Below are positions 24,372 through 27,310 of a stretch of DNA of 64,000 nt, piece by piece (position 1 is the stretch's first letter; each line of letters opens with the position of its first letter). Under the pieces are notes generated by a model. The model was not told where the DNA came from. It saw nothing but the letters and a program-made list of their open reading frames with translations, and made no database searches. This stretch comes from JAZDEY01 sp043808325 [NCBI: Candidatus Eiseniibacteriota bacterium] (GTDB lineage Bacteria; Arandabacterota; Arandabacteria; Arandabacterales): assembly GCA_043808325.1 (NCBI GenBank), contig JAZDEY010000028.1, positions 1 through 64,000 on the forward strand, written 5' to 3'. The translations under genes and the position numbers were made by a program.

Positions 24372-24815
24372 ATGTTTAGCAGGGTTCTCTCAAATCGATA
24401 CCTGATCCTCGGGTTGAGGCTCGTGCTTGGGGGGCTTTTCATATGGGCTTCGCTCTATAAGATTTCCCATCCTGCGGAATTCGCCGAGAACATATACAAC
24501 TACCGGATGCTGCCCGCCGAGCTCGTGAATCTGATGGCTATCGTGATGCCGTGGCTTGAACTGATCTGCGGGACTCTGATAATCCTCGGCCCGATGATCC
24601 GGGGGAGTGCGCTGCTGGTGAGTCTTATGCTGGGGATATTCATCATAGCATTGTCAGGTGCGATCGCCCGGGGACTGGACATTACGTGCGGTTGCTTTGG
24701 GGGAGGTGGGCGTCCCGTCGCCCTAGAGACTCTGCTTGAAGATATTCCGATGCTGATTGCTGCCGTGATAATCGTTGTGTTGGGGCGTCCGTCGCCGGCA
24801 ACCGGGCGGTGGTGA
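24372..24815 (+). CDS. MauE/DoxX-family membrane protein
   Basis: A 147-residue protein with four transmembrane helices and the MauE/DoxX pattern: RLVLGGLFIWASLYKI, AENIYNYRMLP, and a conserved cysteine pair in ITCGCFGGGG. MauE-type proteins are thought to relay electrons or disulphides across the membrane (known for methylamine dehydrogenase maturation). Position inside a cluster of periplasmic redox proteins supports a role as the membrane thiol or electron shuttle here. Homologues fused to rhodanese-like partners are common. The role is inference. Confidence 0.8.
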   Translation: MFSRVLSNRYLILGLRLVLGGLFIWASLYKISHPAEFAENIYNYRMLPAELVNLMAIVMPWLELICGTLIILGPMIRGSALLVSLMLGIFIIALSGAIARGLDITCGCFGGGGRPVALETLLEDIPMLIAAVIIVVLGRPSPATGRW

Positions 24816-24887: not shown

Positions 24888-24923
24888 TCAGGGTGTCAGA
24901 CTAACCATCTATGGAGGATGAGG

Positions 24924-26333
24924 ATGACCGTGAAGAAAGCCAACCTGCACGCTTTCGTCTTCCTGAGTTTTCTCCTCATGATTCTGGGCGGGGCAGCGTT
25001 CGCTCAGGAAGGCAAGCAGTTGATGATCGTAGTCACAACCGATGACAACGGTGAAGTCAATCCCTGTGGTTGACACGCCGGAGATAAGGGTGGCCTGGCC
25101 CGGCGGGCCGGGTACGTTGACTCGCTCCGTGAAGTCTACAACGACGTCGTGGTGGTGGATGTCGGTGACTTCTTCGGCAACCGCATACCTGCGCCGGAAA
25201 AAAGGCGCACCACCGCCGTCATAGACGCGATGAGGATGATCAAGACCGATGTTGTAGCCATTGGCGAGCGCGAGCTGAATTACGGTCTAGATTATCTCAG
25301 GGATTCCATAGACCGTGGGAGATTTGAGGCAGTTTGCGCCAACCTCATGAGCAAGAGGGACAGTAGTCTGGTCTTCCAGCCCTACGTAGTCAAAGCGATC
25401 GGCGGTGTTAGAGTGGGCTTTCTCGGGCTGCTTGACGATGATCCGCGCAGGGTCGGGGTCTTCGAGCAGCTGGAGGACGTTTATGTTTCAAGCTACCAGG
25501 AAGCTGCCCAGAGATATCTCCCCGAGCTCAGGGCAAAATCCGATCTCGTGGTGGCTCTCGCCCACATAGGGCTCGGCAATTCGCGTAAGCTTGCCGAGAC
25601 CCTGCCGGATTTCGACGTGATCCTGGTGGGACACGGCAACGATAGAACCCCGCTGGCTGAGAAGGTCGGGGAGACGATAGTGCTCAAGCCTGAAAGCAAG
25701 AGCAGCTCGATCGGCACACTGCTTCTGGGACTTGATGCCGATGGCAGGATCAGCGGCTTTGACGGCAATACCCTCACGATCACTAAGCAAGGCAGGATGA
25801 ATCCTGACGTCGACCGGCTTGTCAAGACCTGTGAGACCCAGGAGAAACAGCGCGAGCAGCTCCTGTCCAGGAGAAAGATGGAGCTGCCGAACATTCCGAG
25901 GCGGCCTGAAGTGGTCGCTGCGGACGGCTATCTGGGTTGGGAGACCTGCAAGACGTGTCACGGAGCGATTTACGACAGATGGTCGGCCGATCCCCATTCG
26001 CAGGCCTTTGCCACTCTTGCTAAGGACGACAAATGGAACGATCCCAAGTGTCTGGCTTGTCACACCACCGGCTACGAGGTAGCTGCCCAGAAAGACTCGC
26101 TGGATGTAAGGCCCGAGATGTGGAACGTCCAATGTGAAGCCTGTCACGGTATGGGGACCAAGCATCAGCGGGGCATGGTCGCGGCGGTCGGCGAAGATGT
26201 ATGCAGGCGATGCCACACGCCGGAGTGGAGCCCCGACTTTGACTACAGGGCCGCTCTCGCCAAGATCGATCACGGCAGAGACCAGATGGTGCCGAGACAG
26301 GCGGCGGCAACCAAGACCGAGGAGCAGCAGTGA
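24924..26333 (+). CDS. Predicted selenoprotein: UshA-like domain fused to tetraheme cytochrome c
   Basis: The frame from ATG 24924 (GGAGG 6 nt upstream) to TAA-equivalent stop TGA 26331-26333 encodes 469 residues if TGA at 25071-25073 (codon 50) is read through. A signal peptide (about 1-27, ending AFA) precedes VTTDDNGEVNPCG-U-HAGDKGGLARRAG. In the related cytochrome/UshA-like family this position is a Cys (PCGC...GGLARR), so selenocysteine at residue 50 is the simplest reading. The UshA/metallophosphatase-like part (30-300) retains GDFFG, GERELNYG, AHIG and GHGNDR. Four c-type heme sites follow: CKTCH, CLACH, CEACH and CRRCH. Without readthrough the N-terminal signal peptide would be lost from the heme domain, which needs export. 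Location: periplasm. The enzymatic reaction is unknown. Confidence 0.82.
25071..25073 (+). other. In-frame UGA, predicted selenocysteine codon (residue 50)
   Basis: TGA lies in frame between an intact signal peptide and an intact GGLARR motif, with coding character continuing unchanged on both sides. It replaces the second Cys of a PCGC motif. Elsewhere in the window Trp is TGG and TGA ends genes, so a reassigned code is unlikely. Confidence 0.8.
25094..25112 (+). promoter_or_regulatory. Candidate bacterial SECIS hairpin (cytochrome selenoprotein)
   Basis: An 8-bp stem (25094-25101 with 25105-25112, one G-U pair) closes a 3-nt loop GGC. The loop begins 28 nt after the UGA and starts with G, matching the general spacing and loop rule known for bacterial SECIS elements. 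Confidence 0.65.
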
Positions 26334-26467
26334 GACACCGCCCGTTCTTCTTTATGCTTGCGGCCGTTTTTCTGGGGCTGGTTGTAGCGGGGCTTGTTCG
26401 AGGTGAGCTCGGCGACATCGCCTTCAACGGCAGTATGCTCTGAATGTCCTGCATAGGGATCGGGTGA
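26330..26467 (+). CDS. Predicted 45-residue selenoprotein with UXXC motif (CD1871A-like CXXC peptide)
   Basis: The GTG at 26330 overlaps the stop of the cytochrome gene. The frame encodes an N-terminal hydrophobic anchor (about 5-24), a short linker, then SML-U-MSCIGIG and stop. TGA at 26441-26443 is codon 38. Small membrane peptides that end in CxxCIG(I/L)(G/E) are known as the CD1871A-type CXXC-motif family, and the TGA falls exactly on the first Cys. The product would therefore have a Sec38-x-x-Cys41 redox pair at its extreme C-terminus. Without readthrough the peptide would lose the only conserved part. The NapH-like gene begins 12 nt after the stop, so the three genes form one unit. The recollection of the family name is from memory and should be confirmed. 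Confidence 0.78.
26441..26443 (+). other. In-frame UGA, predicted selenocysteine codon (residue 38)
   Basis: TGA replaces the first Cys of a C-terminal CxxCIGIG motif. Seven more sense codons follow before the true stop TGA at 26465-26467. Confidence 0.78.
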
Positions 26468-26471
26468 TCCC
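26456..26471 (+). promoter_or_regulatory. Candidate bacterial SECIS hairpin (UXXC peptide)
   Basis: A perfect 6-bp stem, GGGATC (26456-26461) with GATCCC (26466-26471), closes the loop GGGT. The loop starts 18 nt after the UGA with a G. The true stop codon lies within the 3' side of the hairpin and the next start codon is about 6-9 nt beyond it, so the same structure could also couple translation of the NapH-like gene. Confidence 0.72.
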
Positions 26472-26479
26472 TTACCGTG

Positions 26480-27310
26480 ATGCTCTCGAAGCGGCGTATC
26501 TGGCAGATCGTATCCGCGGTAATCCATAACGGGTATTTCCCTGCTTATTTCGGGACCTTCCTCTATCAGGGATTCCTGAAAGGCGGGTGTACGCCGACCC
26601 TTAACTGCTACGCCTGCCCGTCAGCGCTTTTCTCATGCCCCATCGGGGCCCTTCAGAATTTCGCCCGGCGGCGGCAGTTTCCGTTTTTCCTTGTCGGTTT
26701 CTTTGGGGTTGTGGGAATGGGTGTGGGCAGAATGGCGTGCGGCTGGCTGTGTCCTTTCGGTTTCCTGCAGGACGGCATGAAGAAGATCTCCAAACGGGTC
26801 GTGCGCCTCCCCGCCTGGATGGGCAACCTCAAGTATGCCTCGCTGGTGGTGCTTGCAATAGCCTTACCGTTCCTGCTTGATGAATCTTGGTTCTCGCGGC
26901 TCTGCCCTGCGGGCGCGGTTGAGGGGGCGCTACCGTGGGTGGCGGGCGTGGCCCTGAAGGTGCCCGGCTCACGAGGCATGAGCCTTGAGACCATGATGGG
27001 CACTTCCTTCTGGATCAAGATGGCCATCCTTGTCTTTTTCCTTGTCACCATGGTCTACGTGAAACGGCCCTTCTGCCGGACGTCCTGCCCGATGGGCGCG
27101 GTCTTCTCCCTGTTCAACAAAATGAGCCTGGTCCGGCTCAAGGTCGATCCCGAGGTTTGCGGCCAGTGCAACTTCTGCAGAGATGTCTGCCCGGTCGATC
27201 TCGTAGCCTACAGGCAAGTGGACTCCCCCGAGTGCATCAAGTGTCTTGAGTGCACCAAGTGCCCCAAGGGCGCAATCAAGGTGACCCTGACGCCGGGCGG
27301 CAGGCTGTAA
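26480..27310 (+). CDS. NapH/CcoG-like membrane 4Fe-4S ferredoxin protein
   Basis: A 276-residue inner-membrane protein with four or five helices and cysteine clusters facing the cytoplasm: CTPTLNCYACPSALFSCPIGAL, ACGWLCPFG, CPAGA, CRTSCPMGA. The C-terminal bacterioferredoxin part has CGQCNFCRDVCP and CIKCLECTKCP, enough for two [4Fe-4S] clusters. NapH-type proteins pass electrons from quinol or ferredoxin to periplasmic acceptors. Here it would feed the periplasmic cytochrome and the UXXC peptide upstream. ATG 26480 is used; a GTG directly before it is equally possible. This is the last gene of the redox cluster. Confidence 0.87.
   Translation: MLSKRRIWQIVSAVIHNGYFPAYFGTFLYQGFLKGGCTPTLNCYACPSALFSCPIGALQNFARRRQFPFFLVGFFGVVGMGVGRMACGWLCPFGFLQDGMKKISKRVVRLPAWMGNLKYASLVVLAIALPFLLDESWFSRLCPAGAVEGALPWVAGVALKVPGSRGMSLETMMGTSFWIKMAILVFFLVTMVYVKRPFCRTSCPMGAVFSLFNKMSLVRLKVDPEVCGQCNFCRDVCPVDLVAYRQVDSPECIKCLECTKCPKGAIKVTLTPGGRL

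What the first reader, a model, noticed from the sequence alone, without database searches (positions are those of the whole stretch)
26330..26471. Unannotated 45-residue selenoprotein with a C-terminal UXXC pair
Frame 26330-26467 encodes a membrane-anchored peptide ending SML-U-MSCIGIG, with TGA at the first Cys of a known CxxC-IG(I/L)(G/E) tail. A perfect 6-bp stem with loop GGGU lies 18 nt after the UGA. The stop codon is inside the hairpin and the next gene starts within about 10 nt, so Sec insertion, termination and downstream initiation share one structure. A U-x-x-C pair at the extreme C-terminus of a tiny membrane peptide is unusual.
Basis: partly seen in the sequence, partly recalled or inferred. 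Interest (0 to 1): 0.92.

Follow-up and report, generated by a model that had tools for sequence, protein, structure and literature searches.

The report
Tiny membrane selenoprotein with UxxC tail
A 45-residue bacterial membrane peptide appears to carry the rare amino acid selenocysteine near its very end; relatives in several bacterial phyla carry either selenocysteine or cysteine at the same spot, mostly beside an iron-sulfur membrane protein, so this looks like a real and so far unlisted selenoprotein family, probably passing electrons across the membrane.

Summary
Frame 26330-26467 encodes a 45-residue peptide (one predicted membrane helix, then U-M-S-C-I-G-I-G-stop) with UGA at the first Cys of a C-terminal CxxC. 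Relatives support selenocysteine: of 154 distinct copies, 83 have TGA at that codon and 71 TGC/TGT, all with the same short tail. Two closely related copies have TGA at the second Cys instead, with the hairpin moved 3'. A stem of at least 5 bp at the SECIS position is in 78 of 82 UxxC genes against 11 of 69 CxxC genes. SelB passes its cut-off in 24 of 26 Sec-form genomes; the window's own genome is not held. The peptide is related to NCBIfam CD1871A and is absent from a 2026 table of 119 selenoprotein families. A NapH-like 4Fe-4S membrane protein follows within 2.5 kb in 132 of 154 copies; in one phylum it is fused to an NAD(P)H oxidoreductase, and in Desulfamplus it lies among magnetosome-like genes. 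Best guess: a periplasm-facing selenol/thiol relay for the Fe-S partner. The Sec assignment is strong; the function is inferred.

The parts
26330..26467 (+). CDS of the 45-residue U-peptide (GTG start overlapping the upstream stop; ATG 26354 is a less likely start, since it would remove the basic N-terminus)
26441..26443 (+). UGA read as selenocysteine (U38), first position of UxxC
   Evidence: aligned with TGC/TGT in relatives
26450..26452 (+). TGC, second Cys of the UxxC pair (C41); the matching codon is TGA in two WOR-3-phylum genomes
26455..26472 (+). SECIS-like hairpin, 7 bp stem, loop GGGU (26462-26465)
26465..26467 (+). UGA stop codon inside the hairpin; TAA or TAG at this place in many relatives
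26477..27310 (+). partner gene: NapH-like membrane 4Fe-4S protein (GTG 26477 or ATG 26480)
   Evidence: Pfam Fer4_5 51.7 bits, cut-off 22; NapH/MauN TIGR02163 64.1 bits, below its cut-off 213.05
24918..26333 (+). upstream gene (start 24918 or 24924): UshA-like PCGU selenoprotein followed by a c554-type cytochrome region; Sec TGA at 25071-25073
   Evidence: NF041198 280.9 bits, cut-off 275; same motif with an in-frame stop beside the peptide in 6 of 6 loci of the closest relatives' phylum
24372..24815 (+). MauE/DoxX membrane protein, same strand, upstream context
   Evidence: Pfam MauE 95.2 bits
23892..24365 (+). rhodanese-domain protein, upstream context
   Evidence: Pfam Rhodanese 43.2 bits
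22885..23895 (+). DUF1573 protein, upstream context
   Evidence: Pfam DUF1573 59.7 bits

Best explanation
The frame is a genuine selenoprotein gene. UGA 26441 is decoded as selenocysteine by the ordinary bacterial SelB/SECIS route, using a hairpin that spans the stop codon. The product is a single-pass inner-membrane peptide with its UxxC tail most likely on the periplasmic side. It works as a minimal selenol/thiol redox relay for the NapH-like 4Fe-4S membrane protein encoded just downstream: reducing equivalents pass from the cytoplasmic or quinone side through the partner's Fe-S centres to the peptide's U-C pair, and on to periplasmic redox proteins (in this operon perhaps the UshA-like CxU/cytochrome protein). 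Shown here, in sequence: the Sec/Cys exchange, the hairpin and its covariation, coding selection, the conserved partner, and fusion of the partner to a flavin oxidoreductase in one phylum. Inferred: selenium in the product, topology, the physical complex, the direction of electron flow and the final acceptor.
For: Sec assignment: 83 of 154 copies TGA at Cys1 and 71 TGC/TGT, with the same tail of 7-8 residues in all 154; hairpin in 78 of 82 UxxC against 11 of 69 CxxC; own 3' arms pair better than swapped ones, 6.13 against 5.46 of 7 pairs, best of 1000 swaps 5.66; two related CxxU copies with the hairpin shifted; tRNA-Sec in 8 of 8 and SelB in 24 of 26 Sec-form genomes; differences 168/134/555 on codon positions 1/2/3 among 52 Sec-form pairs of 80-90% identity. 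Across six phylum-wide searches 75 of 344 matching rows carry a stop, each time one TGA (row sums mine). Function: partner within 2.5 kb downstream in 132 of 154 copies; partner fused to Fer4_20 plus Pyr_redox_2 in L015, L178, L179; neighbours include an AhpC-TSA/TPR protein and multihaem cytochromes; more K/R before the helix than after it in 111 of 154.
Against: No protein, 75Se or reporter data. The window's genome is not held, so its own SelB is untested. The lack of TAA/TAG is weak evidence by itself, because one base change turns TGC/TGT into TGA but not into TAA/TAG. 4 of 82 UxxC genes (L141, L151, L152, L153) have a stem under 5 bp here, and only 47 of 82 meet all published SECIS rules on the isolated stem-loop, 8 of the others standing at -7.4 against the limit of -7.5. 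SelB is also over cut-off in 21 of 29 Cys-form genomes, so it discriminates poorly (Fisher p 0.08). No partner was seen downstream in 22 of 154 copies, 3 of them with under 1 kb of sequence. The AlphaFold model of the pair is poor (mean pLDDT 70, the UxxC region below 50) and shows no interpretable docking. The positive-inside signal fails in 43 of 154.
Confidence: 0.6

Rival explanations
1. Same selenoprotein, but the U/CxxC pair is a metal-binding or metal-trafficking site rather than an electron relay.
For: In Desulfamplus magnetovallimortis the pair lies among MamE-, MamM/B- and MamN-like genes, an iron-handling setting. The 2026 review reports predicted binding for about 20% of selenoprotein families, about 70% of those interactions involving metals.
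Against: The conserved partner is an electron-transfer type protein, fused in one phylum to an NAD(P)H oxidoreductase; other neighbours are redox proteins.
Confidence: 0.25
2. A leader peptide whose UGA senses selenium supply and sets expression of the downstream Fe-S gene; the peptide itself does nothing.
For: Very short ORF, hairpin over the stop codon and adjacent downstream start in the window.
Against: Cys versions with the same tail persist, also in genomes where no SelB over cut-off was found; amino-acid-level conservation; partner not adjacent in many Sec forms.
Confidence: 0.05
3. UGA 26441 is a real stop; a 37-residue peptide is made and the tail is chance or decay.
For: The single-sequence hairpin score is unremarkable, and TGA is the only stop one base change away from a Cys codon.
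Against: The same UGA followed by the same 7-residue tail in 83 distinct copies from several phyla, with a SECIS-place hairpin that most Cys forms lack; a decaying tail would not keep these.
Confidence: 0.02
4. Both UGAs are read through, giving one peptide-ferredoxin fusion, since the two frames are the same in the window.
For: No other stop between them in the window.
Against: The second stop is TAA or TAG in many relatives with the same tail.
Confidence: 0.02

Closest known systems
CD1871A family CXXC motif-containing protein (NCBIfam NF040920)
   Same: The peptide aligns to nearly the whole 38-position profile (positions 3-38); of ten relatives scanned singly, two Cys forms pass the cut-off (L018 62.7, L019 37.5 bits).
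   Different: The window peptide scores 14.3 bits against a cut-off of 32; the model's name does not mention a Sec form.
UshA-like (seleno)protein PCGU (NF041198)
   Same: Neighbouring selenoprotein gene in the same gene cluster; a listed family with CxU.
   Different: A different protein; it is context, not the finding.
TsoA, LULAXC motif selenoprotein (NF045695)
   Same: Similar short motif by name.
   Different: Model of 144 positions; no match in 10 of 11 genomes searched and one below cut-off on another contig in G014; not among the families hit by the 24 peptides.
Mad6 of magnetotactic Desulfobacterota
   Same: Described as mostly a NapH domain, mutant with limited magnetic response (PMC4287615, passages); the D. 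magnetovallimortis partner is NapH-like and lies among Mam-like genes.
   Different: I did not compare sequences with Mad6 itself; no small Sec peptide is mentioned in the passages seen.
DsbD/CcdA-type transmembrane thiol reductant systems (recalled)
   Same: Proposed job: moving reducing equivalents to periplasmic thiols.
   Different: Here the carrier would be an Fe-S protein plus a 45-residue peptide; sequence relation was not tested.

Membership tests
bacterial selenoprotein | in-frame UGA aligned with Cys of homologues | tested here: met
bacterial selenoprotein | UGA-bearing homologues in other organisms | tested here: met
   83 distinct UGA copies, the window's included
bacterial selenoprotein | bSECIS: loop 3-9 nt, stem 4-16 bp, G in the first two loop positions, spacing 16-37 nt, energy at most -7.5 kcal/mol (model from PMC13188914) | tested here: met
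   window: loop 4, stem 7, GGGU, spacing 18, -10.0; family 47 of 82 UxxC, 1 of 69 CxxC and 2 of 2 CxxU by all criteria
bacterial selenoprotein | SelB and tRNA-Sec in the organism | tested here: inconclusive
   own genome not held; relatives positive
bacterial selenoprotein | selenium in the product | not testable with these tools
   needs 75Se or mass spectrometry
CD1871A family NF040920 | score at or above 32 bits | tested here: not met
   14.3 bits; so called related, not filed as a member
UshA-like PCGU NF041198 (upstream gene) | score at or above 275 bits | tested here: met
   280.9 bits
NapH/MauN TIGR02163 (partner gene) | score at or above 213.05 bits | tested here: not met
   64.1 bits; NapH-like only
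TsoA NF045695 | profile match to the peptide | tested here: not met

The most novel reading that the evidence does not exclude
The peptide and its partner form an unrecognised transmembrane electron-export module: NAD(P)H or quinol to flavin to Fe-S membrane protein to a 45-residue selenol/thiol shuttle, feeding periplasmic selenoproteins and, in magnetotactic Desulfobacterota, the redox control of iron in magnetosomes. From recall, and from two searches that paired magnetosome terms with selenoprotein or selenocysteine (where the 12 and 2 papers listed held the Se term 0 times), it would be the first selenoprotein tied to a magnetosome gene cluster.
Probability: 0.35. Interest if true: 0.88.

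Novelty: new variant of a known kind. Interest (0 to 1): 0.76.

Why it matters
It adds a tiny, easily overlooked family to the bacterial selenoproteome: every genome with a match carries the Sec form in one phylum (13 matching of 39) and in the phylum of the window's closest relatives (6 matching of 8). It shows Sec at either position of one CxxC, with the RNA hairpin following the codon. It links selenium to a conserved Fe-S membrane partner whose role, including a possible one in magnetosome formation, can be tested genetically. It also shows how a standard ORF reading misses genes of about 45 codons that hold a UGA.

Tried and rejected
TsoA as the parent family: rejected by profile. Pfam: no family shared by the 24 peptides. 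True fusions of the peptide to long proteins: the long open frames in L113-L117, L121 and L122 appear to be unstopped upstream frames ahead of normal peptides, and L118-L120 are unrelated long proteins, dropped before counts. One regex hit with TAA (L013, minus strand) looks like an unrelated frame; it does not appear in the profile-based set. One UxxC copy with N in its downstream stretch was dropped from the hairpin counts. AlphaFold on the read-through tandem of peptide and partner: low confidence; Foldseek found nothing with E at or below 0.001. PDB sequence search with the partner: 5 matches, confined to its ferredoxin-type end. A first pattern missed the PCG-stop motif in one of six kin loci; a check found it.

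Literature. PMC13188914: sections 5, 6 and 7 read, passages. PMC9312934, PMC12013277, PMC4287615, PMC7951924, PMC7017999: passages only. PMC9145555 and PMC13200544: term look-ups that found nothing. Two papers by Haft and co-workers on new selenoproteins are not held, so I judged their families from the review's table. Novelty searches: CD1871A (0 papers), UshA-like with selenoprotein, OS_HP4, deep-Sep, small membrane protein and SECIS (0), NCBIfam, groundwater, NapH-like with selenoprotein (0), magnetosome and selenoprotein, Mad4/Mad6 with selenocysteine; beyond the papers named above I saw only listings. The library holds open-licence papers only, so absence there is not proof.

Full report
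What is there. The frame 26330-26467 reads, with TGA as U, VRHRPFFFMLAAVFLGLVVAGLVRGELGDIAFNGSMLUMSCIGIG and then stops. It starts on a GTG that overlaps the stop of the upstream gene and ends 9 nt before the GTG (26477) of the next gene. The upstream gene (24918 or 24924 to 26333) has its own in-frame TGA at 25071 in a PCG-U-H motif and passes the cut-off of the known UshA-like PCGU selenoprotein model (280.9 against 275 bits). The downstream gene is a membrane 4Fe-4S protein that resembles NapH but does not reach that model's cut-off. So two selenoprotein genes lie in tandem ahead of an Fe-S gene. In the phylum of the window's closest relatives the PCG-stop-H motif precedes the peptide in 6 of 6 loci; it is TGA in the 5 printed, while for the sixth one search shows a stop but not its codon. 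That the window belongs to this phylum is inferred from partner identity (62-63% to L001-L003).

Is UGA selenocysteine? A scan of genome contigs with the partner protein returned 26 loci. Around the partner, 15 sources including the window carry the peptide with TGA and 9 with TGC or TGT at the same codon (alignment A1). I then searched whole genomes by phylum with A1, stops being read through. Phylum labels are taken from the record titles, the genomes themselves being unnamed: closest relatives 6 of 8 genomes (6 rows, all with one TGA); phylum of Desulfamplus 124 of 395 (138 rows, 37 TGA); of Pelotomaculum 63 of 398 (64 rows, 0 TGA); WOR-3 114 of 147 (121 rows, 18 TGA); Hydrogenedentes 1 of 68 (2 rows, 1 TGA); LCP-89 13 of 39 (13 rows, all TGA). 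The row sums are mine: 344 rows, 75 with one TGA, none with TAA or TAG. A1 holds members of several of these genomes, which therefore match by construction. The loci of all 75 TGA rows were fetched. With the earlier loci this gives 157 distinct copies, 3 of them unrelated long proteins that I dropped; of the remaining 154, 83 are UxxC, 2 are CxxU and 69 are CxxC. The lack of TAA/TAG is not decisive, because a single base change turns a Cys codon into TGA only. What a decayed codon would not keep is the tail, 7 or 8 residues long in all 154 copies and nearly uniform in sequence, and the hairpin.

The hairpin. Counting an unbroken stem around positions +20 to +24 from the codon, 78 of 82 UxxC genes have at least 5 pairs and 11 of 69 CxxC genes do (mean 6.4 against 3.6; one UxxC copy with N dropped). 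Shuffling the part after the tail gives a mean of 4.3 for UxxC and 3.7 for CxxC, the latter about what is observed there. Exchanging 3' arms between loci lowers pairing from 6.13 to 5.46 of 7 (best of 1000 exchanges 5.66); relatedness between sequences inflates this test somewhat. By the published bacterial SECIS rules, with the energy of the isolated stem-loop, 47 of 82 UxxC (46 of them with spacing 16-22 nt), 1 of 69 CxxC and 2 of 2 CxxU pass; 8 further UxxC stand at -7.4. The four UxxC genes with fewer than 5 pairs are L141, L151, L152 and L153; L147 has 5 pairs in another register and fails the SECIS rules. L151 and L152 have a different hairpin further 3' (spacing 29, -5.0 kcal/mol). The two CxxU genes, from closely related sequences and so probably one event, are a natural control: the UGA sits 9 nt further 3' and the hairpin has moved 3' too, with a spacing of 21 nt between UGA and loop against 17-18 in nearly all UxxC genes.

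Machinery. tRNA-Sec scores 67-78 bits in 8 of 8 Sec-form genomes tested. Of 9 Cys-form genomes 4 score 65-79 bits, 1 has 57.5 bits at a contig start, and 4 have at most 49 bits, one of these (G017, 49.2) being just over the cut-off of 47; 5 of 14 control genomes also had matches over the cut-off. SelB is over its cut-off in 7 of 8 and 17 of 18 genomes with a Sec form, CxxU included (some matches cover only part of the model), and in 6 of 9 and 15 of 20 Cys-form genomes. The contrast, 24 of 26 against 21 of 29, is not significant (Fisher p 0.08). Many of these genomes are probably incomplete bins, so single absences mean little. The window's own genome is not held.

Is it a protein? Among 52 Sec-form pairs of 80-90% nucleotide identity, differences fall 168/134/555 on codon positions 1/2/3.

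How it may work. A NapH-like gene lies downstream within 150 nt in 98 of 154 copies and within 2.5 kb in 34 more; 22 show none, 3 of them with under 1 kb of sequence. Some of the 22 come from LCP-89-phylum stretches too short to show it: in that phylum the partner can be the C-terminal part of a protein of about 780-800 residues whose N-terminal part is a Fer4_20 plus Pyr_redox_2 NAD(P)H oxidoreductase. This was annotated for L015, L178 and L179 (L015 and L178) and is suggested by length and motifs for L175, L177 and L180. Other neighbours are a thiol-peroxidase-like AhpC-TSA/TPR protein and multihaem cytochromes. In Desulfamplus magnetovallimortis (L012) they are MamE-, MamM/B- and MamN-like genes, all below those models' cut-offs; L005, L008, L013 and L016 share the same neighbour clusters. 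A published screen describes Mad6 as mostly a NapH domain and as contributing to efficient magnetite formation (PMC4287615, passages); that the D. magnetovallimortis partner is Mad6 is my inference. The simplest reading is that the partner passes electrons to the peptide's U-C pair and on to periplasmic acceptors. Topology, contact and direction are inferred; the structure model of the pair was too poor to help.

What is known. The nearest model is NCBIfam CD1871A, a Cys family by name; 15 of 24 peptides match it at E up to 1, with 62.7 and 37.5 bits for L018 and L019 but 14.3 for the window against a cut-off of 32. I therefore call the peptide CD1871A-related, not a member. The 2026 review's table of 119 selenoprotein families (PMC13188914) lists no such family, and its text holds neither the name nor the accession. 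The papers behind some of its entries could not be read here. Verdict: a new Sec variant of a known small-protein family, well supported as a gene, with its function still to be tested.

Noticed in passing
window 25071-25073 (gene 24918-26333): In-frame TGA in a UshA-like PCGU selenoprotein with a c554-type cytochrome region; the plain ORF listing starts this gene only at 25149.
   Followed up: partly
L159 and L160 (genomes G942, G940): CxxU form: TGA at the second Cys of the same motif, with the hairpin shifted 3' with it.
   Followed up: yes
L012, also L005, L008, L013, L016: Sec-form peptide and its NapH-like partner lie among MamE-, MamM/B- and MamN-like genes (annotated for L012; shared clusters), i.e. 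probably a magnetosome gene cluster.
   Followed up: partly
L015:4486-6831, L178:5077-7464, L179:5209-7608: Partner fused to a glutamate-synthase-small-subunit-like NAD(P)H oxidoreductase.
   Followed up: yes
genomes G043, G198, G222, G225, G245, G266, G306, G326, G372; G916, G920; G008: By the search rows, both a TGA form and a plain Cys form of the peptide in one genome, suggesting specialised paralogues.
   Followed up: no
L151, L152, L147: UxxC genes without the usual SECIS-place hairpin; L151 and L152 have another hairpin after the stop codon at spacing 29.
   Followed up: no
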